Of a stretch of 54,915 bases of DNA, positions 164 to 52,546 are shown in pieces; positions within the stretch are counted from its first letter, which is position 1, and every line of letters begins with the position of its first letter. The stretch is taken from assembly GCA_021325275.1 (NCBI GenBank), contig JAJPHL010000035.1, positions 1 to 54,915 of the forward strand. Direction: 5' to 3'. Origin of the DNA: Terriglobia bacterium. Its GTDB lineage: Bacteria > Acidobacteriota > Terriglobia > JAJPHL01. A model generated the notes under the pieces. That model made no database searches, had not been told where the DNA came from, and saw nothing but the letters and a program-made list of their open reading frames with translations. Both the position numbers and the translations under genes were made by a program.

Positions 164-1582
164 TCAGCCGCCGGCGGTCATGGGTGGCTGCAAGCGATTG
201 GCGTCGCAGGAGCATAGCCCCACGAGGTCGTGACTATTGTAGTTGGCGGTCGGCTGAAGAAGCCGCCTATCCATAGTGGACAGCGACAGCTTGAGATCGG
301 AATAGGCTGCCCCTTCATGAAAAATCCGGAGCGCCTCCGCCACGACAAGGCTGGCAGCGGTCGCACCGACAAAAGGAACGGCAACGGCTTTCCCGGCCAA
401 CTGGTATCGGCCGCACTCATCGTCGGTCAGGGCTTGGTAAGCGGGATTTTCGTCCGCCATGCGTTGCTTTTCGGCAGCCATTTTTTCTTCTTCGTCCGCG
501 CTGATGTCAGGCCACAGATCGTTAGGCAGACGCGCATTGGGAAGCGTGTGCAGGGCAATTGTGTCGAAGTTGCTCGCCGTGCCGCCTAAACCGCTCTCAA
601 TAACGCGAGCAAACTCCGCAGTGCCAAGATCGCGGCGCGGCGGATTGGAGTCGAAGCCGCAGAACGCGAGCTTCGGTTCTTTGGTGCGGCATCGGAAGTG
701 CTCATCGAAGGGGCGCTCGATCAGCCGCGTCTGAAAACCGCGCTCCTCAAGCCAAGTACAACATATTCTCGTCTTGTACCGGCCCTGGTCTTCATTCCTG
801 AACAGAAGGCCGGTCTCCAAGTTTGGTCCCTCGACCTTGTCGAAGTCATTGAGGTAGATTTTTACTTCGCCGGGATTTGAATATGGCATTGTCGCGAGCG
901 ACCAGAGATAAGCATTCCCGAGATGTCCCAAGCCGAGGACCCAGAGTTCGCGGGGAAGAAACTCAACCGGAACCCCAAGCGCCTCAGGGGCGCTCACATC
1001 TGCGTCCGGCCGCCAGAGCGATAACGCTACCGTCCGGCGAGTCGCGGTGATGCTGATGTCGGCAAACGCGGAAAACAGCTCGGCGATCGCAAGCGAGCCG
1101 GCCAGAACTCCTGCGAGTGAACAATACTCACGTTGGGGCAACGGCTCGACGACGTGAGCTGATCCCACTTTCGCGATCCATCCGTCGAACGTGGCACGCA
1201 ACGCGTCGTGGGGAGCGAGAGCGTTGCCAAAAACAACGGCGTGCCCGGATGCCATCTTGTCGACTGTCGTGAGTGCGTCTGTGCTGAGGATAGTGCGCAC
1301 TGCGGACCCAAGATTTTGCTTGCGAGATGGCCAGATCAATAGGGGCGTGTCGGCGACATCGGGCTCAAGGGCGACGGTTACGGCCCCGGGAAAGCAGCGA
1401 TGGGCGATGTTGGCGGCGGTGAGCAGGGCGAGTTGGAGCGTGTAAGAATGCCGGAGGTCTCGGCCGCCGAGCAGATTGACGGCGAACTGCCGACGGCGGT
1501 CAATGACTTCGGCCACGCCGGTCTGGTCACGATCCACCAACAGTTTTGAAATGCGAGACAAATCCACTGCTTGGTTATTCAT
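164..1582 (-). CDS. E1-like (ThiF/UBA-type) activating enzyme of a bacterial ubiquitin-like conjugation operon
   Basis: 472 residues from the ATG at 1582, six bases after the JAB stop and preceded by GGTGAG; a longer in-frame start at 1645 would overlap the JAB gene. The C-terminal half is a ThiF/E1 adenylation domain: glycine-rich nucleotide loop GLGHLGNA at residues 217-224, then DFDKVEGPNLETG (246-258) with the acidic/Asn ATP-binding residues. A charged insertion (about 350-388) ends at Cys390 in DDECG, directly before the helix GATAASLVVAEALR, the usual place for the E1 catalytic cysteine. The N-terminal ~200 residues contain a similar helix (SLAGVLAGSLAIAELF) but no nucleotide loop, suggesting an inactive adenylation-like domain, as in E1 enzymes of this class. 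Expected role is to adenylate the C-terminal glycine of the Ubl encoded at 2569-3105 and pass it on. It is the last gene of the operon. The family call is confident; substrate and chemistry are inferred from context. Confidence 0.88.
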   Translation of the reverse strand: MNNQAVDLSRISKLLVDRDQTGVAEVIDRRRQFAVNLLGGRDLRHSYTLQLALLTAANIAHRCFPGAVTVALEPDVADTPLLIWPSRKQNLGSAVRTILSTDALTTVDKMASGHAVVFGNALAPHDALRATFDGWIAKVGSAHVVEPLPQREYCSLAGVLAGSLAIAELFSAFADISITATRRTVALSLWRPDADVSAPEALGVPVEFLPRELWVLGLGHLGNAYLWSLATMPYSNPGEVKIYLNDFDKVEGPNLETGLLFRNEDQGRYKTRICCTWLEERGFQTRLIERPFDEHFRCRTKEPKLAFCGFDSNPPRRDLGTAEFARVIESGLGGTASNFDTIALHTLPNARLPNDLWPDISADEEEKMAAEKQRMADENPAYQALTDDECGRYQLAGKAVAVPFVGATAASLVVAEALRIFHEGAAYSDLKLSLSTMDRRLLQPTANYNSHDLVGLCSCDANRLQPPMTAGG

Positions 1583-1587
1583 TACTC

Positions 1588-2082
1588 TCACCAAAGTGTT
1601 AACGCGATGCGTGCATTTTTCGCGGCGGCGCGGTGCGTGCGCCATTTGCAGTCGCCAAGATACTCGTAGATGCCAATCGCACTAAGCGACCACCACGGAG
1701 TGCGGGCAAAACTCGGAATGATCAAGGCCGTATGGCCTACGATCGGCACCATGGGATTCTGCTGATCGGTTGGGCTCTGTAGAACGCCGCGGGGATGTGT
1801 ATGCACGTCGGCCAGCACCCGCAGCTTGTTTTCGCGGCAGTATTGCCAGAGGGCTGCGTGTCCGGCAGCATGGAAGGCGATAGCTCCGTGCTGATAGGCG
1901 TCGGGGTCGAGTTCGTCATAGCAAATATACCGGCTGACCTTCGCGCCGTTTTTGTGCGGAATCCCGAGCAGAAACGCACCGCTCTCTCGACGCCCCGCGC
2001 ATTTTTTTCGCAACCGTAGAATGACCTCTCGCCAGAGGACCACGGGAAGGCGAATTGGAATGGTCAAAGGGTTAGTTGCCAA
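1588..2082 (-). CDS. JAB/MPN (JAMM) metallo-isopeptidase, deubiquitinase-like
   Basis: 164 residues from a TTG start that overlaps the end of the E2-like gene by 11 bases. A complete JAMM zinc site is visible: Glu33 in RRESGAFLLG, His94-x-His96, Ser103 and Asp106 (HTHPRGVLQSPTD). The gap between the second His and the Ser is six residues, one shorter than the common x7 spacing. JAB proteins in bacterial Ubl operons process the Ubl tail or remove Ubl from targets. Here the Ubl gene already ends in glycine, so deconjugation is the more likely job (inference). It sits third in the order Ubl-E2-JAB-E1, and the overlap and short gaps indicate one transcript with translational coupling. Confidence 0.88.
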   Translation of the reverse strand: MATNPLTIPIRLPVVLWREVILRLRKKCAGRRESGAFLLGIPHKNGAKVSRYICYDELDPDAYQHGAIAFHAAGHAALWQYCRENKLRVLADVHTHPRGVLQSPTDQQNPMVPIVGHTALIIPSFARTPWWSLSAIGIYEYLGDCKWRTHRAAAKNARIALTLW

Positions 2083-2563
2083 GGTAATCTCCGGAATTCA
2101 GAAGCGAATGGATTTCCTGCAAATAATCCACGATAGTGTGGTTGCCCGTCCATATGAGGTGCGGTTGAGTTGTCGGCCAGTCGGCGTGCTCTTGAGCGGC
2201 AATCCGGTCATATGGGTGGTAGAAGGCGTGGTTCTTCCAGTCAGTACGGAAAACCTTCGCAAATCGGCTGTTGGGAGCGCCTTTCGGACGCTTCTCGATT
2301 TCGAGCGCAGCCTTGGTCGACACGTCCCAGAATGTGCCGGTCGGTGGAACGGACCGATATCCGCTGAGATCAAGCAGAACGAAATAACGCTGCGGAGCGT
2401 TAGGCCTCTCCGCCGCGGCGATCCACAAGACCCTGTTCGGCCACTCGGGCGGCTCCGGAACGAGGTCCTGGTCGGGAATGCCCCAGAACCCCTTCGCGGC
2501 ACCGGCTTTGAATTCGGCCGACAGTAAATCCTCACCGAACAAACGCTGATCAGGTTTATCCAT
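2072..2563 (-). CDS. E2-like conjugating-enzyme fold protein lacking any cysteine
   Basis: 163 residues from the ATG at 2563, five bases after the Ubl stop. An upstream in-frame extension to 2830 would overlap the Ubl gene and is rejected. Position between the Ubl and JAB genes, size, and the pattern of a short strand-rich core (QRYFVLLDLSGYRSVPPTG, residues 58-76) followed by a FYHPYDR segment (114-120, compare the His-Pro motif of E2 enzymes) point to the bacterial E2-like family. No cysteine occurs anywhere in the 163 residues, so a thioester cannot form. Candidate nucleophiles are Ser, Thr or Tyr side chains, or the protein could act as a scaffold. I recall that some bacterial Ubl pathways (Bub) were reported to use a non-thioester E2 intermediate, but cannot verify that here. 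The E2 call rests mainly on operon position and weak motif resemblance. Confidence 0.72.
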   Translation of the reverse strand: MDKPDQRLFGEDLLSAEFKAGAAKGFWGIPDQDLVPEPPEWPNRVLWIAAAERPNAPQRYFVLLDLSGYRSVPPTGTFWDVSTKAALEIEKRPKGAPNSRFAKVFRTDWKNHAFYHPYDRIAAQEHADWPTTQPHLIWTGNHTIVDYLQEIHSLLNSGDYLGN

Positions 2564-2568
2564 ATGCA

Positions 2569-3105
2569 CTAGCCCTGTGGCGTAATCTCTTTGACAAGAT
2601 CGAAACACAGCGAACAGTGCGGCGCACTCACGAGTTCGCCGAGATGGAAGTCGGAGCGCGGGCGCTCCGCGCTTTTGCAGAGTTGGAGAACGTATTCGCT
2701 CGCGATCTTGGGATCGATGGGAAACTTCCGGCGCGCCCAATGAGCCACAACCCCGACCGTAGCTGCGGGGGAAAACCTCCGGTGCTTCGTGTCGTGGCCA
2801 AAATTTACCGCAACAGCCACGCGGCGGCAACGATGGCAGTGAATGTGATGGTGATGCTTGATTTTGAGGGTCTCAATGGTCAACGTGATGTCGATCGGCT
2901 CGTGCTGGTCCGAGCCATCTTCGATTTCCTTGGGTTCATGCAACGCATCTTCGCATTCTCCAACAAAGACGAGGGTGTCCTCGCCTTCCTTGAAAAATCC
3001 CGTCCGGATCAACACATCTCGGAGGATCTCGCCGGGCGCGGCGACAACGACCTTCGGTTTCGCCGCCTGCCCATGAACGAACAATTCCAGTTCATCGTTG
3101 TGCAT
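2569..3105 (-). CDS. Tandem ubiquitin-like (beta-grasp) protein with zinc knuckles and C-terminal glycine
   Basis: 178 residues, ATG at 3105 preceded by AAGGTGA. Two beta-grasp-like units can be read. Unit one covers residues 5-82: strands ELELFVHG and KVVVAAPG, helix EILRDVLIRTG, strand DTLVFVGE, and a last strand DITLTIETL. Unit two covers 94-178: strand RVAVAVNFG, strand KHRRFSPAAT, helix VGVVAHWARRKF, strand EYVLQLC, final strand CFDLVKEITPQG. Unit two is bracketed by Cys90-x2-Cys93 and Cys164-x2-Cys167, consistent with one bound zinc. A histidine run (84-87, 89, 91) lies just before. The chain ends Thr-Pro-Gln-Gly, exposing a terminal glycine as needed for adenylation without trimming. 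First gene of the Ubl-E2-JAB-E1 operon and its presumed conjugated modifier. The two-domain layout resembles ISG15-like BilA proteins. The fold assignment is by eye. Confidence 0.8.
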   Translation of the reverse strand: MHNDELELFVHGQAAKPKVVVAAPGEILRDVLIRTGFFKEGEDTLVFVGECEDALHEPKEIEDGSDQHEPIDITLTIETLKIKHHHHIHCHRCRRVAVAVNFGHDTKHRRFSPAATVGVVAHWARRKFPIDPKIASEYVLQLCKSAERPRSDFHLGELVSAPHCSLCFDLVKEITPQG

Positions 3106-3162: not shown

Positions 3163-3258
3163 ACTGTCTTGACGGACAACGGTTCCTCCGCGCCATTTAC
3201 TCGACATGGCGCGGTGTTCCATTGAGGATCGCCTCAAATCGTTGTCCATACAGACAAC
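3163..3258. promoter_or_regulatory. Paired operators between the Ubl operon and the XRE regulator
   Basis: Two sites share the same geometry. The first is ACTGTC-N6-GACAAC at 3163-3180 and the second is GTTGTC-N6-GACAAC at 3241-3258, the latter a perfect 6+6 inverted repeat. One lies on the side of the Ubl operon (58 bases from its start), the other 37 bases before the XRE start. The likely reader is the XRE protein encoded at 3295, giving coordinated repression of both directions. The motif is seen; the binding protein is inferred. Confidence 0.62.
3188..3214. promoter_or_regulatory. 9-bp perfect inverted repeat in the divergent promoter region
   Basis: CCGCGCCAT and ATGGCGCGG are separated by nine bases and lie between the two TGTC-N6-GACA operators. 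No T-run follows on either strand, so it is unlikely to be a simple terminator. It may be a third protein-binding site or an RNA hairpin in one leader. Confidence 0.4.
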
Positions 3259-3294
3259 AGTATCACGCACGCATCTTTGTGTCAAGGAGAGCTA

Positions 3295-3687
3295 GTGGAT
3301 CAGCCGTCCTTCGGGTTTTTACTTCGTTATTTGCGAGATCAGAGAGGTCTTTCACTTCGTGAGTTTGCGCAGTTGGCGGACGTGGATCACGCCTATGTTT
3401 ACCGTTTGGAGGCCGGCGATAAAGAGTCGCCGTCCGAGGAAGTAGTGACGAAGTTCATACGGGCACTGAAAGCGGGAAAGCGCGAGGCTAATATGCTGCG
3501 CTACTTGGCAGAACATCCCGATACGGACGCTGCGCTGGTTTCACACGTCATGAATGACCCAACCGTGACCTATGAGATCTTCACCTCTACTGCCAGCATG
3601 GTGTTTCGGGGTACCGGACGTCCGGATTATTCGAAGAGGATCGCCCTTGTGCGAAGGATTCTGGAGGAAGAGCAGAATGATGGATGA
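3295..3687 (+). CDS. XRE-family (Cro/CI) transcriptional regulator
   Basis: 130 residues. I choose the GTG at 3295 because AAGGAG lies five bases upstream; an in-frame TTG at 3277 has no such site. Residues about 8-60 form a helix-turn-helix: FLLRYLRDQRGLSLREFAQLA then VDHAYVYRLEAG. The rest is a short C-terminal tail that could hold the cleavage site of its partner protease. The stop overlaps the start of the ImmA-like gene, a pairing in which a DNA-binding repressor is destroyed by a metalloprotease on stress. The gene diverges from the Ubl operon and is the obvious candidate to bind the TGTC-N6-GACA operators. The arrangement resembles the CapH/CapP control pair of CBASS systems (functional analogy, inferred). 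Confidence 0.85.
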   Translation: MDQPSFGFLLRYLRDQRGLSLREFAQLADVDHAYVYRLEAGDKESPSEEVVTKFIRALKAGKREANMLRYLAEHPDTDAALVSHVMNDPTVTYEIFTSTASMVFRGTGRPDYSKRIALVRRILEEEQNDG

Positions 3688-4540
3688 GACTACGGTGGTA
3701 ATCAGGGCCCGGGGGCTGGTTGCTGAAGTGAAGCCGACTGAGATTCCCGTACCCATCGAGGCGTATCTGAATCACGTCGGCGCGACTCTGCGTGTTGAGG
3801 ATGATCTCGAAGAAGATGAAGCAGGCTTTTCATTCCAAAGTAATGGCAAGTGGTACATTGGGGTTAACGGCAACGACCGCGAAGAACGGCAGCGATTCAC
3901 CATTTGCCATGAGTTGGCGCACATAGTCCTTCAATTACCGTCCGAACACAAGGCAAGCCCTTGGTGGAGTTACATGAAACGGCCGAAAACCGAAATCCTC
4001 TGTGACGTCTTTGCCGCGGAATTGCTTCTTCCGTTCCGCCTCTTCCAACCGTTAGCAGAAGGAATGGCAATCAGCTTCACCTCGATCGACGAACTCGCCG
4101 CGCGGTTTATGGCTTCACGAACCGCAACGGGTTCTCGGTTCGCAACCGTCATTAAGGCTCCGTGCGCCTTTGTCCTGTCTGAGCAAGGAAAGGTCCGATA
4201 CGCTGCGCGATCCACTTCCTTGAGAGAAGCCAGTGCATGGATCCCGCCGCGGCGAGATATTCCTGCAGGCAGCGTCTCGGGACGCCTTAGGGCTGGCGAG
4301 AAGAATCTGGTCGCCGAGGCGATCGATGCGGAGGACTGGTTTAACGATTGGGATCGCGGTGGAACGCTGATGGAAGAGGCCCGCTATCACAGTGAGTGGG
4401 ACCAAACGTTAACTCTGCTGTCGTTCGAAGACGAAGAAATTCCACCGCCATCATGGGCACCGCCCCGACTAAGTGAAGAGGATGAACTCCTGCCGGAACT
4501 GGACGGCGTGCTCCGCTTCAAAAGCAAGAAAGGCCGCTAG
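3677..4540 (+). CDS. ImmA/IrrE-type zinc metallopeptidase
   Basis: 287 residues from the first of two adjacent ATG codons, with GGAGGAAG six bases upstream; it overlaps the XRE stop by 11 bases. The zinc motif HELAH is at 78-82 within RFTICHELAHIVL, and the downstream helix CDVFAAELLLP supplies a plausible third ligand, Glu115. This is the domain layout of ImmA/IrrE proteins, which inactivate XRE repressors by cleavage. The C-terminal ~120 residues are a family-specific extension with many acidic residues and no motif I recognise. Co-translation with the XRE gene and divergence from the Ubl operon suggest it relieves repression of that operon under a signal such as DNA damage or infection; the signal is unknown. 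Confidence 0.88.
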   Translation: MMDETTVVIRARGLVAEVKPTEIPVPIEAYLNHVGATLRVEDDLEEDEAGFSFQSNGKWYIGVNGNDREERQRFTICHELAHIVLQLPSEHKASPWWSYMKRPKTEILCDVFAAELLLPFRLFQPLAEGMAISFTSIDELAARFMASRTATGSRFATVIKAPCAFVLSEQGKVRYAARSTSLREASAWIPPRRDIPAGSVSGRLRAGEKNLVAEAIDAEDWFNDWDRGGTLMEEARYHSEWDQTLTLLSFEDEEIPPPSWAPPRLSEEDELLPELDGVLRFKSKKGR

Positions 4541-4883: not shown

Positions 4884-5156
4884 ATGGCGCAACAGAGGCA
4901 ACGATTGAACATCGGCTACAAAGTAGAAACCCACCACCACCTGACGCGAGCAACAGAACAGGAAGTCCGCGAGAATGGCGCTCAGGTTCTTCGGAATGCT
5001 GACCAAGGGATCCAGACGGCTGTTGTCGGAACAGACGGTTCGGTTCGTGCAGTGGTTGGCTTAAACGGAAACCGTTACCTACCTGATCCTGACCCAGATC
5101 CTCTAGACGAGATCCTCCGATCTGCTCTCGAATCTAGTTCGAGTGAGCCGAAGTAG
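4884..5156 (+). CDS. Small hypothetical protein, first of a two-gene unit
   Basis: 90 residues, hydrophilic, no signal or membrane segment. Shows HHHLTRATEQEV near residue 17, then ATAVVG-like small-residue stretches (QTAVVGTDGSVRAVVGLNG) and a Pro-Asp repeat (DPDPDPLDE) near residue 68. I do not recognise a family. The stop is five bases before the 301-residue gene, so the two are probably co-transcribed. Its place directly downstream of the XRE/ImmA pair in an accessory island suggests a link to defence or stress functions, but nothing in the sequence proves this. Confidence 0.6.
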   Translation: MAQQRQRLNIGYKVETHHHLTRATEQEVRENGAQVLRNADQGIQTAVVGTDGSVRAVVGLNGNRYLPDPDPDPLDEILRSALESSSSEPK

Positions 5157-5161
5157 CGCGT

Positions 5162-6067
5162 ATGCCCGGCGTGCCAGTGCCCGAGGGCTACGTACGGCCC
5201 GATCCTGAGCCTGGCCCGCATCTGCCCACTCTCAACAAATCAATAGTCTGCACGCTCAACGACGGGGCGGAACGCCAATACCCGGCCCTTAACGATTACT
5301 TAGAACATTACATCTCGCAGGGAATCGTACGAGACCAAGCTGATCTTGTTGAGAACTATGGCCACCTTATCGCTGAAGTTTTCTTTCAGTGGGTCACCAC
5401 CGGGCAATTGGGTTGTCTGTTTGCCGTTAAACTCGCGAAAAGACCGCGAGAGAACCGATGGCTGCCAATCGTGCAACTCCGCGCTTTATCAGAAGGGAAC
5501 CAACTCGGCGGTCAACTGAATTCTCACTTAGACGACGCCAGCGACAGCCACGAGGCTGTCGCGATCATCTTCCCTGACGTGGTTACGCCGCAAGACATTG
5601 TGGCTCTCGTAAATGCCCTTTGCAGTGACCCGTCCGGCCGCTGGTATCGAACCGACGATGGCATCGACCCGGATGAGTCGGGTGCGCTTCGCTTGATTGG
5701 GCTGCGGTGGATATTGAAAGGTGGAACTAGTGTTAACTACGTGCTCGGGTTCGCTTCACTCGCTACAATGCCGTTGACGCGTCGCAGTCCGTTCACAGCC
5801 CTGTTCCTTCGGGTCAAGGAAGAGAAACGGACGCCGGCGCACCGTGAAGATGGCCGTGTGCAGGTTCATCTCGCAGATCTAGACTCAACGTTCCATCCCC
5901 AGTTGGTTCACGACAGAATTTGGGAACAAACCAAAGCGACCCGGGCCAATCATGTTGAACCGCAAATGACATCAGCAGCACGGGCGCGCGTTACGTTCTC
6001 TGTGTCGCCCGAGGCAGCAGCAAACCTTTGTCCTGCGAAGACCGTCACTCTGGAAAAAGACGGGTAA
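5162..6067 (+). CDS. Hypothetical protein of the accessory island
   Basis: 301 residues, soluble, no signal peptide and no recognised motif. The N-terminus is Pro-rich (PVPEGYVRPDPEPGPHLP). Hydrophobic strands and helices through the middle (LIAEVFFQWVTTGQLGCLFAVKLA; EAVAIIFPDVVTPQDIVALVNAL; LRLIGLRWILKGGTSVNYVLGFASLATMPLTRRSPFTALFLRV) suggest one compact alpha/beta domain of about 230 residues. It follows the 90-residue gene by five bases and was probably acquired with it. Function unknown. Confidence 0.65.
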   Translation: MPGVPVPEGYVRPDPEPGPHLPTLNKSIVCTLNDGAERQYPALNDYLEHYISQGIVRDQADLVENYGHLIAEVFFQWVTTGQLGCLFAVKLAKRPRENRWLPIVQLRALSEGNQLGGQLNSHLDDASDSHEAVAIIFPDVVTPQDIVALVNALCSDPSGRWYRTDDGIDPDESGALRLIGLRWILKGGTSVNYVLGFASLATMPLTRRSPFTALFLRVKEEKRTPAHREDGRVQVHLADLDSTFHPQLVHDRIWEQTKATRANHVEPQMTSAARARVTFSVSPEAAANLCPAKTVTLEKDG

Positions 6068-8870: not shown

Positions 8871-11800
8871 TTACCTTTGCGGCGCGGTGCCATCGCGGAC
8901 GCACGCCCAATGGACCTCGTGCGATTCATCCGACATCGAGGCTTTCGCAAACGGACACGTGAACGCCGCTGGATTCGGCGTGCCTCTCATGAAATGGGGA
9001 CATTCATCCATTGCGGTTCGGCGATCCTCGCGCCGCCGGATCATCGGAATGCGTCCGAGCTGGACCAGGGCATCCATACATTTTGTTCCGGTCTGGGTGC
9101 TCTCATCATTGGGATCCGCGGGGGCCTGCATTTTCGCAAATCCCGCGAGGGTTTCGTAACACCCGTTGGCGATCGATCGCTGAATCCGCTTCTGATCCAT
9201 GCCCATGGACTTGCAGAATGCAAACGTACCGTTTAGGTGATCCTTGGAGCGGGGATAAATCGACATCACTTTGCAAACCACCACGCCTTTCAGAAAGTCC
9301 AGCTCGCGCTGGCTGGCCGGCGTGGCCCCGGAAGTGAGCAGCCGGCCCACTTGGCGATGGACGCTTTCGGCCGTCATTTGCATGGACACGAGTTTGACGT
9401 TGTCCTGCAGCGAATCGGCGCGCTGCTTGGTGGCGAGAATCGAGTCGTAAGGTCCGTCCCTGTCCTCGGCTCGGGACGGCAACACGTCCAATGCTCCGGC
9501 CAGAATCAGATCCGGGCGATCGTGGCGCGCCTGAAGACAATCCATGACGCGTTCCTTGGGATGCGCTTCGAGGTGAGCAAGCTGCGCTTGGGAAAGGATC
9601 TGGACCGCCGGCAAAAACGGCAGGTTGTCGAACAAGCCGCCATCGGAATAGAAAACGTTCGGAAGGCCGGCGCCCGGGAACACCGAGCTCTGGCGGCGCG
9701 GCGCAAAGACGGCTGGAAATGCGCTGGAGGATAGCGCCGCCTCCACATAGTCGTAGGGCGCGCCGGGGTAGAGTCCCCAACCGCCGAGCAAGACGGACGA
9801 CTGCGTGCCCAAGTCGGTGGTGTCACCGAAGTACGCAATCGGCCGCGATTGCGAGAAGCCGGCGAAGGGCTGGCGAGCGCCGGCTGGCGCGATTTGTTCG
9901 CCGAGTAGATCGCGTGCCGCAATCTCCAACAATGACGTGCCGATCACGGACGTCTCAATTCCCATGCGGCTCAATGTCTCTCGCTTGAGTTGGGTTCCAA
10001 ACAATTGGACAGCTTCGGCCACGTGACCGGCGACAAACGCCGCGGCGATCCGGGAAGTTTGACGGTGCGGGACCATGAACAAGTCGGAAATGGCGTCGAT
10101 CAACGCCGCCGGCGCGCCGGAAACGGCAAAACCGGCGTCGGAGCGGCTTCCCCGGTGAACCATGCGATGGATATCCCGCGGCGAGAGATGCACGGCACGC
10201 CCGCGTAATCCTAGTTCGCGGGCCGCCGCCTTCACCGTTTTGGTCAGCGCGACTTTGTCGTCGACGTGCAGAAATGTTTTGACCAACCGATCGAGAGTAT
10301 CTCTTTGGAACGCGAACATGGCGCCGAGCGCACCGCCCATCAACGTGCCGACCGACGCGCCCACGATCAGATCCGGCTGAATATTGCAGTCGCCCAGCGC
10401 CGCCACCATTCCGATGTGGAATGCGCCGCGGAAAACTCCGCCATTGGCTAGAAAAACGATTCGCGGCTCGGCGCCGGAGAGATTCGGGAATGTTTTCAAC
10501 AACTGGGTGCGCTCACCGATCGAAGCCACCAGCGATACCAGGGGAGAAACGGTGTCGTGAGGTTTTGGTTTCCGCAATTGTTGCGTGCAGCGGCGGCAAA
10601 CTTCAGGCAAGCCCGGCGTCTCGCCTAGGAATCCGGCGCGGCGATCGGTGATGCGCACGAGCAACTCGCGGCAGGGAACGTGGCCCTCGCCGGGTATCGC
10701 CCTGAGATCGTCGCGATATAAACGCTCCAGCGAGGCTCGGCAGCCGGCCGCGACCACCGCCAAAACGTCGTCGCGCGATGGATCGAGCGGTCGTTTGAAT
10801 TCCAGTTCTTGATCCGGTGCGATCTCGTCGGCGAACACCGTCTCCGGCGCGCGGGTTCCTTCGGGACCTGGAACTCCTTCCGGAATCATTCGTTCAAGCG
10901 CGCTTAGGAAATTCGTATTGATGACTTCGAGCTGGGTGTCGCGGCGCTTCGAGAGAGTCATGCTGCGAATGCCAACGTCGATGATGTCGGGAGGTGTGTC
11001 GGAGGTCGGAATCTCCGCGCCCGAACGCGGGCGAATGGGAACCGAGTAAACCACATGGATCGCGGGCCGCCTGTTCCGCCGCTGCCCCGCCGTCAAGGTT
11101 GCGACCACCGGCGAGGTGGGATTCCGCCGCAGGTAGGTGAACAGAGCAGGAATCGGATTCTGCCGAACCACGCTGCCGTCCACCAGCGCCAACGGCTCCT
11201 TTTTGTTCTTGGCCTTCCACTCTTGTTCCAGATCCGCGCTCAACCAACACTCCCGTTCCTCGGGTGTTCGCAGAAGCGTAGGCTCGAACAACGGCGGCAG
11301 CGCCAGCGCCGTGCGCAACGCATCGACCAATGGCGTGCCGGTGCGGGCCCACAGTTGCATCGCGTCCTTGGGCTTGTCGTTCAGTGTGAGGGTTTGAAGG
11401 GGCGCAGCCACGATCAACACCGGCATGGGATCTTCGCTCAACACGGCCCCAACATGCGTGGTGGAATCGTGCGACACACTCCAAGCCGGATCGAAGAGCT
11501 TGGCCAAGCGGTAACTAAGGTGATAATGCGGCACGATGCCTTTGAGCAAACCCACCTGCTTCAGGATGTCCGAGATCACAGGCCGCCCCACTTCCGGGAT
11601 CGAGGCTACCGTAAAGATTCGCACCCAGGTCAGGTTCAAGACCGCGCCGGAAAGATAATAAATGAGCAGGTCCGGCGTGTCGGACGGAAAGAACGCCCCA
11701 ATCAACGTCAGAAGCTTCCACGCAACCCACCAAGCGACTGCCATCAGGACAGCGACCGCGCCGCGCCACACCAACGGGTAGGCAGTCGCGCGTCGCTTGA

Positions 11801-13223
11801 GCCAATCGCTCCGCATGACGCACCGGCGCAGAAACCAGGCGCCGATCGCCAGGATCAAGGCACTCGCAAACGGGGCAACACATGCGCAGATCGCCGGCAA
11901 CAGGCGCTTCACGATTTCCAGTCGCGCGTTCGCTTCGTCTCCTCGCTCAGGGTGCAGCGCGTGATATCCGTGATAGATGAGCAGAATAATGCAGGTCTCG
12001 GTGTAGCAAATCAGGCTGATCGCGTGAACTGTGAGAAACGAAAAGATTGGCCAACCAAATAGCGGCCGTTGGATTCTCAAACGAAGCTTGGGCAACAATC
12101 CTCGACGCACCATCCAATGACGAAGTTCCGGAACCGCGGCGAGCGGTACCGAGACGATAAAGCTGACCAGCAACCAGAAGAACCCGATAACAATTGCAAT
12201 TCCCGCGGCGTCGGAGTGCCCGACGATGGCCCAGATTATTGCTCCCCCAAGCGCCAGGAGGGTCACGAAGTTGAAAATGGAACCGCCATAGATGAAGGCG
12301 CGAATCACGGGACTGACGAAACGTCGAACAAACGGCCGGCTGATGATCCAGCGCCGGAGGCGAGCGGTGAAGCTGATGCCCCATAACAACACCACGACCG
12401 CGCCAACGCTAAACCAGATCCTCGGGAACCATTCACCCACCTTGCGAGACACCGCGTCGGGAAAACTTCCGGCGAATCCTCCAATCCCCACCAGGGCAAT
12501 GATGATCAAGCCGAAAATGAGGCTCACCAGGTTGAACGCGCCGAGGATTCGCCAACCAAATGGCGGCGAAGCTCCGCGTTCCGCGGCAGGGGCATCGAAC
12601 TGGTAATCCGGAAACATCTCCGGAGAGAGCATCGCGTAAATCACCAACTGCGTGACCAACACGAGTGCGGACCAGAGCACACTCAAAGCGCTCTTGAATC
12701 TTTGAAAGGCCGGGAACTTTTCTTGAACGCGTACCCAACTCACGATGAGTTGGGCCACGCGGCCGACGCGCAACGGCAAGCGAGCCAGCCATCGACCTAA
12801 GCGAACCAACAAGTATCGCCGCCGGCGCGCGTCGCGTTCCACCGGCTTGAGATAGTCGGGTGCGGCCGAGTCGCGAATGGGAATCATGTCGGCGAAGAAA
12901 TCGGATTGATCGGGCAAAGCCTCCCAGAGCACCGCCCAGGAATTGTCGGTGAATTCCTGGAGGTATTTCCGAAACCATTGCCAGCGCGCGGCCTCTTCGG
13001 CAGGCGCCGGCAAGCCCGCGCCTTTGGCCGCTTCGCGATACGCCGTCTGCATGGCGACCGCACTGACGGCACCCATCGAAATACCGGCGACAATGGCGGG
13101 TGGCTTGCGCTCCGCGGCGAGATACGCATGAATCGTCCCGGCGCCGAAAACCGCGCCGGCGGGTCCGGCTGTGAAACAGATGGCGTCGTCGCCGCCCTGT
13201 GGTTCCGGCGGGTGGGGTTGCAT
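8871..13223 (-). CDS. Giant double-patatin phospholipase-like membrane protein
   Basis: 1450 residues; ATG at 13223 with AGGAG upstream. Two patatin modules are visible. Module one has an oxyanion-type loop GPAGAVFGAG (about 20-29), nucleophile elbow GISMG with Ser49, and an Asp-Gly (VDGSVVRQNP) only at about residue 680. Between them lie about nine hydrophobic segments (about 175-570), so a membrane domain appears inserted inside the catalytic module. Module two has NGGVFRGAFHIG, elbow GASVG (Ser near 956) and YSDGGLFDN (Asp near 1191), a full Ser-Asp dyad. The C-terminal ~200 residues are Cys-rich and of unknown role. Patatins are acyl hydrolases of membrane lipids. No N-terminal signal peptide is seen. 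Stand-alone gene, divergent from 13252. Confidence 0.85.
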   Translation of the reverse strand: MQPHPPEPQGGDDAICFTAGPAGAVFGAGTIHAYLAAERKPPAIVAGISMGAVSAVAMQTAYREAAKGAGLPAPAEEAARWQWFRKYLQEFTDNSWAVLWEALPDQSDFFADMIPIRDSAAPDYLKPVERDARRRRYLLVRLGRWLARLPLRVGRVAQLIVSWVRVQEKFPAFQRFKSALSVLWSALVLVTQLVIYAMLSPEMFPDYQFDAPAAERGASPPFGWRILGAFNLVSLIFGLIIIALVGIGGFAGSFPDAVSRKVGEWFPRIWFSVGAVVVLLWGISFTARLRRWIISRPFVRRFVSPVIRAFIYGGSIFNFVTLLALGGAIIWAIVGHSDAAGIAIVIGFFWLLVSFIVSVPLAAVPELRHWMVRRGLLPKLRLRIQRPLFGWPIFSFLTVHAISLICYTETCIILLIYHGYHALHPERGDEANARLEIVKRLLPAICACVAPFASALILAIGAWFLRRCVMRSDWLKRRATAYPLVWRGAVAVLMAVAWWVAWKLLTLIGAFFPSDTPDLLIYYLSGAVLNLTWVRIFTVASIPEVGRPVISDILKQVGLLKGIVPHYHLSYRLAKLFDPAWSVSHDSTTHVGAVLSEDPMPVLIVAAPLQTLTLNDKPKDAMQLWARTGTPLVDALRTALALPPLFEPTLLRTPEERECWLSADLEQEWKAKNKKEPLALVDGSVVRQNPIPALFTYLRRNPTSPVVATLTAGQRRNRRPAIHVVYSVPIRPRSGAEIPTSDTPPDIIDVGIRSMTLSKRRDTQLEVINTNFLSALERMIPEGVPGPEGTRAPETVFADEIAPDQELEFKRPLDPSRDDVLAVVAAGCRASLERLYRDDLRAIPGEGHVPCRELLVRITDRRAGFLGETPGLPEVCRRCTQQLRKPKPHDTVSPLVSLVASIGERTQLLKTFPNLSGAEPRIVFLANGGVFRGAFHIGMVAALGDCNIQPDLIVGASVGTLMGGALGAMFAFQRDTLDRLVKTFLHVDDKVALTKTVKAAARELGLRGRAVHLSPRDIHRMVHRGSRSDAGFAVSGAPAALIDAISDLFMVPHRQTSRIAAAFVAGHVAEAVQLFGTQLKRETLSRMGIETSVIGTSLLEIAARDLLGEQIAPAGARQPFAGFSQSRPIAYFGDTTDLGTQSSVLLGGWGLYPGAPYDYVEAALSSSAFPAVFAPRRQSSVFPGAGLPNVFYSDGGLFDNLPFLPAVQILSQAQLAHLEAHPKERVMDCLQARHDRPDLILAGALDVLPSRAEDRDGPYDSILATKQRADSLQDNVKLVSMQMTAESVHRQVGRLLTSGATPASQRELDFLKGVVVCKVMSIYPRSKDHLNGTFAFCKSMGMDQKRIQRSIANGCYETLAGFAKMQAPADPNDESTQTGTKCMDALVQLGRIPMIRRREDRRTAMDECPHFMRGTPNPAAFTCPFAKASMSDESHEVHWACVRDGTAPQR

Positions 13224-47313: not shown

Positions 47314-48432
47314 TTAATCCAATAGCGCCCGGCTGCGCGCGGCTTGCGATTCGCGCAGCGGAAGATAGATTGCCTGATCGAGCACGATCCTCTGTCCTTC
47401 ACGGCTGAGCACGAAACGCAAGAATTCCTTCAGCGCGGGATTCACCGGTTTCGCCGGATCGCGATTGAAATTCAGGAAAACCAGGCGCGACAGCGGATAC
47501 GCGGCCGCGGCCACGTTTTCATAGGTCGGCGCGTAAGCCTCGCGGCCCTCTGGCGCCAAGGCCAACAGTTTTACCGGCGCATCGACATACGCCAGTCCGG
47601 CATAGCCGATGCCGTAGCGGTCAGCGGCCACGCGGCCGGCCAGCGGGAAAACCACTTTGTCGAACGAGATGCCGTCGCGCCATTCGCCGCGTTTTCCCGG
47701 CACGCTTAACACGCGCTGGCGCACAAATTCTTCAAAGCCGTTCCACGGCTGCACGCCGTATGCGTGAATCGGCTTGTCGGCCCATTCGCCCGTCAATCCA
47801 AGATCGCCCCACTTGGTGATCGCCGCACTGCCGCGATGTCGCGTGGAGGAAAGCATGCCGTCGAGCTGCGCGAAGGTCAGCTTTTCGATGGGATTATCTT
47901 TGTGGACGAAAAAACCAATGGCGTCGAGGAATCCGAAATGGCGATACGTTCCGCCGCAGATCGGCACACTCAATGGATCGTAGTGGAACGCGGCGCGGAA
48001 ACCGGTGATGTCGTCGGGACGCAGTTCGCGCGACACGAAGACCAGATCGAGGTTACCCTTCACCAATTCCTGTGCGCCCAAACTGCCCGCGTAGGGCGGC
48101 GCCACATCAATCTCGACGCCGGGATAATACTTGCGAAACGCCTCGATCCACTTCGCGGCGAGTCCCGGCAACACGTCCGATGACGCCGCCTTGAACTTCG
48201 CGGTGAGTTTGCGATCGGCGTGCGGCTCATACGCCTGCAGCGCGGCGTCCAGCGTTGGCTGCAGGATTTCCGGCACAGGCAGCTTGCGGCCGTTGGCGCG
48301 GCCCGCGGCGGCTTCGGCGTCGGTTTGCGGCTTGTTGGTGGGCAGCGCCGGCGTGACCCATTGCACCATCGATTGCCCGTACAAACCGGCCGCCGCCAGC
48401 AAGGCGAATGAGGCCAAAAGCGTTTTTCGCAT
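47314..48432 (-). CDS. PstS-like binding protein 3
   Basis: 372 residues from the ATG at 48432. Signal peptide TLLASFALLAAAGLYGQ. Carries an extra ~70-residue N-terminal part (LPVPEILQPTLDAALQAYEPHADRKL). PstS-like body: KAASSDVLPGLAAKWIEAFRKYYPGVEIDV, YAGSLGAQELVKGNLDLVFVSREL, YPLSRLVFLNFNRDPAKPVNPALKEFLRFVLSREGQRIV. First gene of the two-gene minus-strand unit; divergent from PstS-like 4. Confidence 0.85.
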   Translation of the reverse strand: MRKTLLASFALLAAAGLYGQSMVQWVTPALPTNKPQTDAEAAAGRANGRKLPVPEILQPTLDAALQAYEPHADRKLTAKFKAASSDVLPGLAAKWIEAFRKYYPGVEIDVAPPYAGSLGAQELVKGNLDLVFVSRELRPDDITGFRAAFHYDPLSVPICGGTYRHFGFLDAIGFFVHKDNPIEKLTFAQLDGMLSSTRHRGSAAITKWGDLGLTGEWADKPIHAYGVQPWNGFEEFVRQRVLSVPGKRGEWRDGISFDKVVFPLAGRVAADRYGIGYAGLAYVDAPVKLLALAPEGREAYAPTYENVAAAAYPLSRLVFLNFNRDPAKPVNPALKEFLRFVLSREGQRIVLDQAIYLPLRESQAARSRALLD

Positions 48433-48525
48433 AGCGAGATCCCCTTTAACGCTGCGCAGTCTATCTCGGTCCAGCTTAATGCAGCATGAACAGGGAGCCA
48501 TGCCATCCCGCTGTACACTACTCTG

Positions 48526-49467
48526 GTGCGCCGCTTATCCGTCTTGTTGTCCATGCTCGCCGCCATTGCCTGCCACGGCCAAGCCACCATCCGCGTTTGG
48601 GGCAGCCCGCAGATGAGTGGTGTGATGCGCCTGTGGGAGCAAGGCTTTCAGAAGCATCATCCCGAAATCGACTTTCACGACGAACTCCACGGAACCGCCT
48701 CGGGCATCGCAGGATTGTACACCGGCGTCGCGGACCTCGCGCTGATGGGCCGCGAGATTTGGCCGGCGGAAACGTTGGCGTTCCAAACGGTATTTCCCTG
48801 GAAGCCGGTGGAGATCGAGGTAGCCACGGGAAGTTACGACATTCCGAAGTCAACATATGCGCTGGTGATTTACGTCCACAAATCGAATCCGCTAACGAAA
48901 CTGACCCTGGATCAGGTGGCGGCGGCCTTCGGATCGAAAGCGCGCACATGGGGCGATCTCGGAATCGGCGGAGAGTGGGCCGGCAAGGCGATCCATCTGT
49001 ACAATTTCGACTACGACAACGACAAAGCGCTGTTCTTTCGCCGTCGCGTGCTTCAGGATGGCTACCGTTGGGACAGCGCGACGAAGGAATTCGCCAATCA
49101 GACCAACGCGCGCGGCGAAACCATCGACTCAGGACAGTTGATTCTCGACGCGCTGGCGCGCGATCCGTTGGGGCTGGCCGTTTCCAATCCGCACTACGCC
49201 AATCGCGATGTGAAAGCGCTGGCGCTTGATGGCGTAACCGCCAGCGTCGAGACGGTGCGTTCTCGCGCCTACCCGCTGACGCGCGCGGTCTACATTTACC
49301 TGAATCGCGATCCCAAGCAGCCGCTCGATTCGAAGGTCGGTGATTTTCTCAGTTACATCCTCAGCGCCGAAGGACAGCAAGACGTAGCTCGCGAGGCAAC
49401 GTACCTGCCGCTAACGCAGGAGGTGATCGCCGCGCAACTGCGTCAATTAGGTGTTGCCGTTCGGTAG
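48526..49467 (+). CDS. PstS-like binding protein 4
   Basis: 313 residues from a GTG. Signal peptide RRLSVLLSMLAAIACHGQ. Core: IRVWGSPQMSGVMRLWEQGFQKHHPEIDFHDELHGTASGIAGLYTGVADLALMGREIW, then YPLTRAVYIYLNRDPKQPLDSKVGDFLSYILSAEGQQDV. Most like protein 2 (46306). Its last 21 bases overlap the end of the histidine kinase gene tail to tail. Confidence 0.85.
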   Translation: MRRLSVLLSMLAAIACHGQATIRVWGSPQMSGVMRLWEQGFQKHHPEIDFHDELHGTASGIAGLYTGVADLALMGREIWPAETLAFQTVFPWKPVEIEVATGSYDIPKSTYALVIYVHKSNPLTKLTLDQVAAAFGSKARTWGDLGIGGEWAGKAIHLYNFDYDNDKALFFRRRVLQDGYRWDSATKEFANQTNARGETIDSGQLILDALARDPLGLAVSNPHYANRDVKALALDGVTASVETVRSRAYPLTRAVYIYLNRDPKQPLDSKVGDFLSYILSAEGQQDVAREATYLPLTQEVIAAQLRQLGVAVR

Positions 49468-50868
49468 AATCGGTAACACCGCGACGAAAACGCTGCCCGT
49501 TGAATCGGAACGTTCCAGCGACAAACTTCCGCCATGCGCCTGGGCGATCGACTGCGCGATCGCCAACCCCAAGCCCGCGCCGCCTCCGATGCTGGGATCG
49601 CTTGGGCGCGAGCGTGGTTTGTCCACGCGAAAGAAACGCTCGAAGACGCGCGCTTGCGATTCCGGAGGAATGCCCGGTCCGGTGTCGCTGACGGAGACAA
49701 CGTAGGCGCCGTTCTCGCCATGCAAATCCACGGTGACTTTTCCTCCGGCGGGCGTGTACTTCACGGCGTTGTCCAGCAGGTTCGAAACGAGTTGGCGCAG
49801 CATATCTTCATCCGCCTCGCAGGGCGATTCGGGCAAAGGCGGCGACTGCACCGCAACGTCCTTCGATGCTCCCAGCACGCGCGTGGCGCGCGTGACTTCC
49901 AGGATCAACTCGTCCAGGTGAAAGAAATGCTTTTGCAATTTCAGTTGGCCGGAGTCGGCGCGCGCCAGCCGAAACATATCCTCGACGATATGCGTGAGGC
50001 GGCGGCTCTGTTCGTCCACGATGGTCAGCGCGCTGCGGTAGTCGTCTTCGTCGCGGCGCGATTTTCCAAGCGTCACCGAAGCCGTGGTGCGCAGCACCGA
50101 AACCGGCGTGCGCAGCTCGTGCGAAGCGTCGGCCATAAACTGGCGTTGCACAGCGAAGGCCGCGTTCAGGCGCGACAACAGATCGTTGAAGGCACTGGCC
50201 AGTTTGCCCAACTCGTCGGCGGGATTGGCAATGGACAAACGCTGATCCAGATTCTCGGCGCCGATGCGCAGCGCTTGCTCCGACATCACCATCACCGGTT
50301 CCAGGCTCTTGCGCGCCAGGAACCAGCCACCCGTTGCGGCCAGCAGCAAACCGAACGGCACGGCGATCGCCAGGATCAAACGGTCGGCAGCGAGCTCGCC
50401 GAGCAGCGGCGTCAACGAGCGGCTGGTGACGATCGTGTAAGTGCGGCCCACCGGATCGAGCGTGACGCGCACCGCGGCGACGCGCCAGTCTCCGCCCGCC
50501 GCCTGCACGGTGGCCAAATGGATGGCGCCGTCCTCCAATTCGCCGGCCGGAAAGCGGATGCGCTCGCTGATCCCAACAGGCTTTTCCGCTAACAGGCCGC
50601 CTTGAGCGTCGAGAATCGCTAGCGTATGATCGGGAAGGTTCAGTGTTTTAACGGCGTCGCGGGCGGCCAGTTCATCCAATCCGCTCTCGCTCAATTCCTT
50701 GGTCAAAATGGAAACGGTGGCGCTGCAAACGGATTTCAGAATACCGTCCGCGCGCTCATAAAAATTGTCGCGCAACAGCACGTACAGCCCGAAACTGAAG
50801 CCGACCAGCAGCAGGGCCAGCACGCCGACATGCCACAACGTCAAGCGTGCGCGTACGGAACGAAACAT
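49447..50868 (-). CDS. Membrane histidine kinase (HAMP-HisKA-HATPase)
   Basis: 473 residues. TM1 about 12-32, periplasmic sensor about 35-160 with no recognised fold, TM2 about 164-185, HAMP, then phospho-acceptor His250 in ADASHELRTPVSVLR, N box NLLDNAVKYTPAGG, G boxes DTGPGIPPES and GGGAGLGLAIAQ. CusS/TctE-like architecture. The window's only response regulator is at 37933-38667, ten kilobases away on the same strand, so the two may be split partners around the transport/PstS-like cluster (inference). Confidence 0.93.
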   Translation of the reverse strand: MFRSVRARLTLWHVGVLALLLVGFSFGLYVLLRDNFYERADGILKSVCSATVSILTKELSESGLDELAARDAVKTLNLPDHTLAILDAQGGLLAEKPVGISERIRFPAGELEDGAIHLATVQAAGGDWRVAAVRVTLDPVGRTYTIVTSRSLTPLLGELAADRLILAIAVPFGLLLAATGGWFLARKSLEPVMVMSEQALRIGAENLDQRLSIANPADELGKLASAFNDLLSRLNAAFAVQRQFMADASHELRTPVSVLRTTASVTLGKSRRDEDDYRSALTIVDEQSRRLTHIVEDMFRLARADSGQLKLQKHFFHLDELILEVTRATRVLGASKDVAVQSPPLPESPCEADEDMLRQLVSNLLDNAVKYTPAGGKVTVDLHGENGAYVVSVSDTGPGIPPESQARVFERFFRVDKPRSRPSDPSIGGGAGLGLAIAQSIAQAHGGSLSLERSDSTGSVFVAVLPILPNGNT

Positions 50869-50930
50869 GGCACCAGAGTATTCCGCGCGTCACACGATTG
50901 CAAGGCGCTGGTGGAACGTTCTCCGGTAGA

Positions 50931-51980: not shown

Positions 51981-52119
51981 AGCGGTCTCGCGCCTCGCCC
52001 GCCGGAGGTCCCGGGACACTCTTGGAGACTCTGGCGATGCCGGTTGCCGCGGTTGGCGTCATCCGAAACCGCAGGGAGCGGACGAGGCCGAAGCGCGTCG
52101 AAGCGTGTAGAATGACGGA

Positions 52120-52546
52120 ATGCTTTTAGCATCTGGGTCGCGTCTCGGCGTCTATGAGGTGCTTGCCCCACTCGGCGCGGGCGGAATGGGAGAGGTCTAC
52201 CGCGCGCGTGATGCCAAACTGAATCGCGAGGTCGCCATCAAGATCATGCCGGCGGCCTTCGCTGCTGATCCCGCTCGTCTGGCGCGATTCCAGCGCGAGG
52301 CGCAGGTCCTCGCGTCGCTGAATCATCCCGGAATTGCGGCGATTTATGGATTCGAAGCTGGCGGTTCTCCCGCGCAACATCCATGCGCTTCCGGTGGAAG
52401 GTGGGCCAATGAAGCGCTTGACCGACTTCGGGGAGCGTCCGGTTCTGATCGTTCGCCGCTTCGCATGGTCGCCGGATGGCCGGTTCATTTATGCCGCGGT
52501 AGCCGAGACCGACGCCGATATTGTGCGAATCACTGGACTGCTATAG
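52120..52546 (+). pseudogene. Internally deleted Ser/Thr kinase-propeller gene
   Basis: The first ~84 codons are a kinase N-lobe: LGVYEVLAPLGAGGMGEVYRARDAKLNREVAIKIMP, then ARLARFQREAQVLASLNHPGIAAIYGFEAGG. At that point the sequence jumps, one frame over, to the last ~55 codons of the usual C-terminal WD40/TolB-like propeller (NIHALPVEGGPMKRLTDFGE, FAWSPDGRFIYAAVAETDADIV) with a TAG at 52544-52546. The catalytic loop, DFG and most of the propeller, about 700 residues, are gone. Confidence 0.82.

What the first reader, a model, noticed from the sequence alone, without database searches (positions are those of the whole stretch)
164..3105. Complete bacterial ubiquitin-like conjugation operon (Ubl - E2-like - JAB - E1)
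Four overlapping or closely spaced minus-strand genes supply a modifier, an E2-like protein, a JAMM peptidase and an E1. No CD-NTase or effector gene is present, which separates it from type II CBASS, where E1/E2-like and JAB proteins also occur. The order is that of the BIL/Bub antiphage operons. It may be a divergent acidobacterial member of that family.
Basis: partly seen in the sequence, partly recalled or inferred. Interest (0 to 1): 0.85.

Follow-up and report, generated by a model that had tools for sequence, protein, structure and literature searches.

The report
BIL defence operon with cysteine-free E2
A soil bacterium carries a known kind of anti-virus operon that attaches ubiquitin-like tags to proteins, but it belongs to a conserved branch in which the middle enzyme (E2) has lost the cysteine that normally carries the tag, so the tag must be passed on in some other way.

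Summary
Minus-strand 164-3105 encodes four tightly packed genes, and each matches the PADLOC BIL (bacterial ISG15-like) models over nearly full length: BilA, BilB, BilC and BilD, E 6e-46 to 3e-135. This is BIL, not a new family and not type II CBASS. Predicted structures confirm a tandem beta-grasp BilA and an E2-fold BilB.

First, BilB has no cysteine at all. At the E2 active-site position, 64 of 66 ordinary BIL operons have Cys ('LPCDR'); the window and its clade have Tyr ('HPYDR', 16 of 17; the other has Trp). That clade is strongly supported (100/100) and spans Acidobacteria and alpha-, beta- and gammaproteobacteria. The E1 cysteine (Cys390), the JAMM residues and the BilA terminal glycine are all kept, and BilB is under purifying selection. 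A separate rhizobial lineage has Trp at the site, so the cysteine was probably lost at least twice.

Second, the operon is divergently paired with CapH-CapP, a regulator pair that responds to DNA damage. Two conserved GTTGTC-N6-GACAAC palindromes lie between them.

Most likely BilB acts as a non-catalytic (UEV-like) partner and BilA passes from the E1 cysteine straight to targets. The loss is shown by sequence; the transfer route is inferred.

The parts
2569..3105 (-). bilA: tandem beta-grasp (ISG15-like) modifier, 178 aa, ends exactly at Gly178 (EITPQG, codon 2572-2574), so no C-terminal trimming is needed to expose the Gly
   Evidence: PADLOC BilA E 5.9e-46; AF2 pLDDT 94.3; Foldseek/VIA hits to di-ubiquitin, ISG15 and the 8tyx/8tyz bacterial Ubl; the family profile alone hits linear di-ubiquitin, 2w9n E 1.4e-6; Gly178 invariant in 57 sequences
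2072..2563 (-). bilB: E2-fold protein, 163 aa, no cysteine
   Evidence: PADLOC BilB E 6.8e-47; PF24702 E 1.1e-34; AF2 pLDDT 95, best structural matches are bacterial E2 chains 8tz0_C (Z 10.8) and 8tyz_C (Z 9.9); translation without Cys
2210..2218 (-). His116-Pro117-Tyr118 (CAC CCA TAT) of BilB: Tyr stands where 64 of 66 ordinary BilB have Cys; His116 is present in 17/17 of the clade and 0/66 of the others
1588..2082 (-). bilC: JAMM peptidase, 164 aa, with E33, H94, H96, S103, D106 intact
   Evidence: PADLOC BilC E 1.2e-56; phmmer to 8tyx_B BilC E 6.9e-7; residues conserved 17/17 and 68/68
164..1582 (-). bilD: E1-like enzyme, 472 aa; ATP-site residues and Cys390 (codon 413-415, TGC) intact
   Evidence: PADLOC BilD E 3e-135; profile match to NEDD8 E1 E 0.002; Cys390 conserved in all readable sequences
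3277..3687 (+). capH-like XRE-family helix-turn-helix repressor, divergent from bilA
   Evidence: PADLOC capH E 3.4e-13, Pfam HTH_31 E 1.1e-12
3677..4540 (+). capP-like peptidase (Peptidase_M78, HELAH), start overlaps the end of capH
   Evidence: PADLOC capP E 3.6e-53; Pfam M78 E 1.5e-14; overlap read directly
3163..3180 (.). palindrome ACTGTC-N6-GACAAC, bilA-proximal; probable CapH operator
3241..3258 (.). palindrome GTTGTC-N6-GACAAC, capH-proximal; probable CapH operator, and the only exact copy in the 54.9-kb window. The pair recurs, 75-78 bp apart, in all seven loci examined whose capH-capP is close to the window's, the window included

Best explanation
This is a DNA-damage-inducible BIL-type ubiquitin-like conjugation operon of a conserved sub-lineage whose E2 homologue (BilB) carries Tyr in place of the catalytic Cys and has no cysteine. 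Proposed working: (1) CapH represses both divergent promoters through the paired palindromes. Single-stranded DNA made during phage infection or DNA damage activates CapP, which cleaves CapH and lets bilABCD be expressed (inferred from the published CapH-CapP mechanism). (2) BilD adenylates BilA at Gly178, which is already exposed, and holds it as a thioester on Cys390 (inferred from intact residues). (3) BilB cannot take BilA as a thioester (shown by sequence). It binds the charged E1 as a UEV-like adaptor, positioning the target or stabilising the E1-BilA thioester, so that BilA passes directly from Cys390 to a lysine or amine of the target, probably a phage structural protein as in the characterised BIL (inferred). 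(4) The intact JAMM enzyme BilC removes or recycles BilA (inferred).
For: BIL membership of all four proteins. BilB has no Cys; 6 of the 14 clade BilB in alignment A3, the window included, have none, and the clade has no conserved Cys column that could substitute. Tyr 16/17 and Trp 1/17 in the clade versus Cys 64/66 outside. His116 was gained in 17/17 versus 0/66, so the whole motif changed in concert. Clade support 100/100, and the wider tree needs two changes between Cys and aromatic. A second lineage with Trp at the site also keeps the E1 Cys, JAMM residues and BilA Gly. E1 Cys390 and ATP-site residues and all five JAMM residues are retained. BilB dN/dS is 0.07-0.23 wherever dS is measurable, in the range of its operon partners, so it is not decaying. 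Clade-specific residues of BilD are enriched in 313-402, around Cys390 (7 of 15, binomial P 0.014 uncorrected). BilA ends at the Gly in 16/17 versus 31/65. CapP-like genes lie beside 13/17 versus 1/65 operons at E<1e-30, with a conserved operator pair. No UQ_con E2 in the 12 other clade-host genomes searched. UEV domains of eukaryotes, E2 folds without the catalytic Cys, are an established precedent (PMC9944984).
Against: No experiment was possible. Direct E1-to-target transfer is inferred from absence. The window's own genome encodes a UQ_con E2 with a Cys at C26:51828-52094. That Tyr118 corresponds to the catalytic Cys of the structurally solved BilB rests on motif spacing and fold position, because the solved E2 (8tz0) is not detectable by sequence. 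The primary BIL and Bub papers were not readable here, so this E2 variation may already be noted in them.
Confidence: 0.55

Rival explanations
1. BilB is still a covalent carrier but through a different nucleophile: Tyr118 (helped by His116) holds BilA as an aryl ester, or Tyr118 itself is the acceptor.
For: Tyr is nearly invariant in the clade and coupled with a new His two residues before it; the surrounding E2 active-site residues (Y115, P117, D119, R120, H126, W129) are kept.
Against: One clade member has Trp (L036) and a whole second lineage has Trp, which cannot carry an ester; no precedent for a Tyr-loaded E2 is known to me.
Confidence: 0.1
2. The catalytic E2 is supplied in trans by another gene of the host, and BilB works as a UEV beside it (as Mms2 does for Ubc13).
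For: The window's genome has a UQ_con E2 with an HPN motif and Cys in a separate cluster with a JAMM protease and a RING-like protein; BilB also resembles Mms2 structurally (Z 8.5).
Against: 12 of 12 other clade-host genomes have no UQ_con match, Prok-E2_B was not found in the window's genome (that search had no positive control), some clade members are on plasmids, and only one BilB exists in the window's genome.
Confidence: 0.12
3. The lineage no longer conjugates. BilD-charged BilA acts non-covalently or as an E1-bound signal, with BilB as sensor or brake, and BilC acts on something else.
For: Loss of the E2 Cys; BilA no longer carries residues after Gly that BilC would need to trim.
Against: All E1 and JAMM catalytic residues and the terminal Gly are under strict conservation, which is hard to explain without conjugation and deconjugation.
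Confidence: 0.13
4. Ordinary BIL operon: the Cys was lost in one genome or misread, or the operon is decaying.
For: None beyond the single-locus view.
Against: 15 further operons in distant phyla share Tyr; dN/dS far below 1 in all four genes; all frames are open.
Confidence: 0.02

Closest known systems
BIL / Bil (bacterial ISG15-like; Millman 2022, Hoer 2024, PADLOC PDLC03844-03847)
   Same: All four genes, order A-B-C-D, tandem-Ubl BilA, JAMM and E1 catalytic residues, C-terminal Gly
   Different: BilB active-site Cys replaced by Tyr (Trp in one member and in a second lineage), new His two residues before it; BilA already ends at Gly; CapH-CapP alongside. Single Leu or Ser exceptions were seen inside the Cys lineages (L044, L056)
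Ubl-E1-E2-JAMM complex of Chambers 2024 (PDB 8tyx, 8tyy, 8tyz, 8tz0)
   Same: E2 and Ubl folds (Z about 10), BilC sequence match E 6.9e-7, E2 motif spacing C-x5-E-x-H (PMC11354881) matches the family's Cys-to-His spacing
   Different: Its E2 and E1 were not detected by sequence profile, and it has the catalytic Cys138
Bub (bacterial ubiquitination-like) operons
   Same: Ubl + E1 + E2 + peptidase and association with CapW or CapH-CapP (219 of 544 with either; PMC13373217)
   Different: The proteins here match Bil models; they were not tested against Bub models. Bub operons have not been shown to stop phage (PMC13373217)
Eukaryotic UEV proteins (Mms2, Tsg101)
   Same: E2 fold without the catalytic Cys; Mms2 structural match Z 8.5; Tsg101 reportedly has Tyr at the site (from memory, unverified)
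   Different: UEVs such as Mms2 work beside a catalytic E2, and none is encoded in this operon
CapH-CapP regulators of CBASS and other operons
   Same: HTH repressor plus M78 peptidase, divergent, with operator-like palindromes
   Different: Here beside BIL; I found no report of this pairing in the papers I could read

Membership tests
BIL (bacterial ISG15-like) | Four genes bilA-bilB-bilC-bilD in that order | tested here: met
   PADLOC models E 6e-46 to 3e-135, nearly full length; order read directly
BIL (bacterial ISG15-like) | BilA with two ubiquitin-like folds and a C-terminal Gly | tested here: met
   AF2 pLDDT 94.3; di-Ub/ISG15 matches; Gly178 invariant
BIL (bacterial ISG15-like) | E1-like BilD with ATP site and catalytic Cys | tested here: met
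   Cys390 and ATP-site residues
BIL (bacterial ISG15-like) | JAMM peptidase BilC with metal and catalytic residues | tested here: met
   E33, H94, H96, S103, D106
BIL (bacterial ISG15-like) | BilB with E2 fold | tested here: met
   AF2 pLDDT 95; best matches bacterial E2 8tz0/8tyz Z 10.8/9.9
BIL (bacterial ISG15-like) | BilB catalytic cysteine (present in the characterised system; a feature of the mechanism rather than of the gene family, since the family model scores Tyr and Trp members well too) | tested here: not met
   No Cys in window BilB; Tyr118 at the site. PADLOC BilB E 6.8e-47 for the window and 2.5e-45 to 5.2e-41 for the Trp members. I file the operon as a variant of BIL, not as a canonical BIL enzyme cascade
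BIL (bacterial ISG15-like) | Anti-phage protection by BilA conjugation to phage structural proteins | not testable with these tools
   Needs phage challenge and mass spectrometry
Type II CBASS | CD-NTase and effector next to E1/E2-like Cap2 and JAMM Cap3 | tested here: not met
   No CD-NTase or effector among the neighbouring genes to 6.1 kb by Pfam, NCBIfam and PADLOC; the operon lies 163 bp from the contig end, so only one side could be read. The nearest patatin gene (8871-13223) is more than 4 kb beyond capP
Bub operons | Bub-type Ubl, E1, E2 and protease | tested here: inconclusive
   No Bub model was available; the proteins match Bil models full length
CapH-CapP regulator pair | HTH repressor followed by overlapping M78 peptidase, divergent from the operon, with operators | tested here: met
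   PADLOC capH 3.4e-13 and capP 3.6e-53; operator pair conserved in 7 loci including the window
UEV (E2 variant) | E2 fold without the catalytic Cys and working with a catalytic E2 | tested here: inconclusive
   First half met; no partner E2 in the operon, one UQ_con gene elsewhere in this genome only

The most novel reading that the evidence does not exclude
Two lineages of bacterial ubiquitin-like conjugation systems have independently given up the E2 thioester while keeping an E2-fold protein. They attach the modifier by a route not used by canonical E1-E2 cascades: direct E1-to-target transfer guided by a cysteine-free E2 homologue, or a non-thioester intermediate.
Probability: 0.5. Interest if true: 0.8.

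Novelty: new variant of a known kind. Interest (0 to 1): 0.62.

Why it matters
The E1-to-E2 thioester hand-off is the hallmark of ubiquitin-type conjugation. A conserved, selected, multi-phylum lineage that keeps the E1 cysteine, the modifier and the JAMM enzyme but has no conserved cysteine in its E2 makes a direct question testable: can an E2 fold support conjugation without carrying the modifier, and is that how E2s or UEVs began? It also warns that defence catalogues lump two or three chemically different systems under one name, since one BilB model scores Cys, Tyr and Trp members alike. The conserved CapH operators give a ready handle for inducing the system.

Tried and rejected
Type II CBASS: no CD-NTase or effector found. 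A single-genome loss or sequencing error: rejected by 15 other Tyr operons. Decaying bilB: rejected by dN/dS. A relocated cysteine: no conserved Cys column in the clade. A UQ_con E2 in trans as a general solution: absent from 12 of 13 clade-host genomes. Proving that Tyr118 equals the catalytic Cys of the solved E2 by sequence search: profile and single-sequence searches do not reach 8tz0_C; only fold, motif spacing and consistent numbering support it. Reading the primary BIL and Bub papers: not held. Phage genomes: no BilB hit. Using locus ids as a search centre failed and was replaced by genome handles. The BilB matches first seen at weak E-values (L003, L011-L014) were mostly chance or distant and were set aside; L020 and L021 are distant members and were kept out of the counts.
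Full report
OBSERVATION. The four minus-strand genes are present at the stated coordinates and are tightly packed: 5-nt gap, 11-nt overlap, 5-nt gap. Against PADLOC-DB each protein matches one BIL model over nearly its whole length: BilA 5.9e-46, BilB 6.8e-47, BilC 1.2e-56, BilD 3e-135. Pfam adds DUF7665 for BilB (1.1e-34) and sub-threshold JAB and ThiF matches. The genome holds one copy of the operon, at the very end of contig C27.

FOLDS. Two structure predictions were run from alignments of unmodified homologues. BilB (pLDDT 95) is an E2: the best structural matches are the E2 chains of the solved bacterial E1-E2-Ubl complex, 8tz0_C Z 10.8 and 8tyz_C Z 9.9, then many eukaryotic E2s. BilA (pLDDT 94.3) is a tandem beta-grasp protein; the family profile alone finds linear di-ubiquitin in the PDB, and the model finds di-ubiquitin, ISG15 and the bacterial Ubl 8tyx/8tyz.

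THE MISSING CYSTEINE. The window BilB has no cysteine at all. A BilD-profile scan of 84,980 species genomes, plus plasmid and viral collections, gave about 85 BIL loci. At the position of window Tyr118, 64 of 66 BilB outside the window's clade have Cys (one Leu, one Ser); the 17 BilB inside have Tyr (16) or Trp (1). Around it the residues Y115, P117, D119, R120, H126 and W129 are shared by both groups, but position 116 is His in 17/17 of the clade and never His in the other 66. A second, frequent cysteine of ordinary BilB (53 of 66, at window Leu66) is also gone, and no other cysteine column is conserved in the clade; six of the 14 clade members in alignment A3, the window included, have no cysteine. 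A review gives the characterised BilB motif as Cys138, Glu144, His146, His151 (PMC11354881); the spacing from Cys to the invariant His (+8) is the same here, and in the fold match model residues 1-156 correspond to chain residues 8-179, which puts Tyr118 near 138. This correspondence is well supported but not proven residue by residue, because the solved E2 is out of reach of sequence searches. The conclusion that the window's BilB cannot form a thioester does not depend on it, since there is no cysteine.

EVERYTHING ELSE IS KEPT. In the same clade the E1 cysteine (Cys390) is present in every readable BilD, the ATP-site residues are nearly invariant, the five JAMM residues of BilC are invariant, and BilA always has the terminal Gly. 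BilA ends exactly at that Gly in 16 of 17 clade members versus 31 of 65 others, and its tail is TP[QK]G rather than RV[NE]G. dN/dS of BilB is 0.07-0.23 wherever dS is measurable, in the range of its operon partners. Clade-specific residues of BilD concentrate around Cys390 (7 of 15 in 313-402, binomial P 0.014, uncorrected).

PHYLOGENY AND A SECOND LOSS. On a BilD tree, which does not contain the trait, the Tyr operons form one clade: quick tree SH-aLRT 99, careful tree 100/100. It includes Acidobacteria, Bradyrhizobium, Mesorhizobium, Silicimonas, Marinicaulis, Paraburkholderia, Methylomonas and Acidithiobacillus. Five further, more distant rhizobial/alphaproteobacterial operons (L108, L109, L123-L125) have Trp at the site and again keep the E1 Cys and the JAMM residues, and their BilA keeps an Asn-Gly end. 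The careful tree needs two changes between Cys and aromatic. Leaving out the window's and the centre's own genomes, even draws found 2 Tyr and 3 Cys operons in Acidobacteriota and 2 Trp and 2 Cys in Alphaproteobacteria, so forms without the active-site Cys are common, on small numbers. One PADLOC model scores all three types.

REGULATION. Divergent from bilA are a CapH-like HTH gene and an overlapping CapP-like M78 peptidase gene. With a CapP profile at E below 1e-30, such a gene lies beside 13 of 17 clade operons and 1 of 65 Cys operons (related sequences, so the P value of 7e-11 is only indicative, and the profile was built from clade members). All five Trp operons also have an M78 match nearby, one of them weak. 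Between capH and bilA the window has two palindromes, GTTGTC-N6-GACAAC at 3241-3258 (exact, the only exact copy in 54.9 kb) and ACTGTC-N6-GACAAC at 3163-3180. The pair, 75-78 bp apart, recurs in all seven examined loci whose capH-capP is close to the window's, including the window, Silicimonas and Marinicaulis; L024 and L036, whose regulators are more distant, do not show the pair. CapH-CapP is published as a DNA-damage switch in which ssDNA activates CapP to cleave CapH, and CapW or CapH-CapP accompany 219 of 544 Bub operons (PMC13373217).

MECHANISM. The sequence shows that the E1, JAMM and modifier parts are intact and that the E2-fold protein cannot carry the modifier on cysteine. The simplest reading is that BilB has become a UEV-like adaptor and that BilA goes from E1 Cys390 directly to targets. 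Eukaryotic UEVs are E2 folds without the catalytic Cys (PMC9944984). A Tyr ester is disfavoured because Trp replaces Tyr in one clade member and in the second lineage. A catalytic E2 in trans is disfavoured because 12 other host genomes have no UQ_con gene, although the window's own genome does have one. Conjugation to a phage tail component is known for the Collimonas BIL (PMC11364771) and is extended here by inference.

WHAT IS KNOWN AND WHAT IS NOT. As a family this is BIL, already known. What appears new, with the caution that the primary papers could not be read, is the recognition of a conserved branch without the E2 cysteine and with its own regulator. I recall, without being able to verify it, that the P. 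caffeinilytica CF1 operon was among BIL systems tested for defence; its copy here (L105, plasmid NZ_CP031468.1) is of the Tyr type. If that recollection is right, the branch is already known to protect cells and only its chemistry is open.

Noticed in passing
G000 contig C26 about 48030-52271 (locus L111 5031-9272, + strand): A second, unrelated ubiquitin-like cluster in the same genome: membrane-anchored JAMM protease, FHA protein, RING-like zinc protein, GYF-type membrane protein and a UQ_con E2 with an HPN motif and a Cys (PF00179 E 1.5e-7).
   Followed up: partly
L106 6013-7302 (Burkholderia cepacia ATCC 25416 plasmid): An orphan BilD of the Tyr clade without bilA, bilB or bilC, near a patatin gene and, further off, a SIR2 gene.
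   Followed up: partly
L029 5879-7362 (Mesorhizobium escarrei): BilD with only the last 34 residues of BilC left; bilA and bilB deleted, a decayed relative of the intact plasmid operon L104.
   Followed up: yes
L107 113-3469 and the upstream ORFs of many Cys-type loci, e.g. L082 865-4284: A large ORF of about 1,150 aa, a UvrD-like helicase in the one annotated case (L107), lies upstream of bilA in many Cys-type operons and gives weak matches to the M78 profile in several.
   Followed up: no
L032 and L084 (Marinicaulis sp. OFTM65): One metagenome-assembled genome carries both a Tyr-type and a Cys-type BIL operon; Bradyrhizobium G477 carries a Tyr type and a Trp type.
   Followed up: no
window 8871-13223, - strand: A 1450-aa protein with patatin phospholipase regions and hydrophobic stretches, unlinked to the BIL operon.
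   Followed up: no
window 4884-6067, + strand: Two small genes (90 and 301 aa) downstream of capP without significant family matches in Pfam, NCBIfam or PADLOC.
   Followed up: no
L044 5044-5520 and L056 189-668: Isolated BilB with Leu or Ser at the active-site Cys inside Cys-type lineages; the BilD of L056 is nearly identical to those of Cys-bearing L055 and L057.
   Followed up: no
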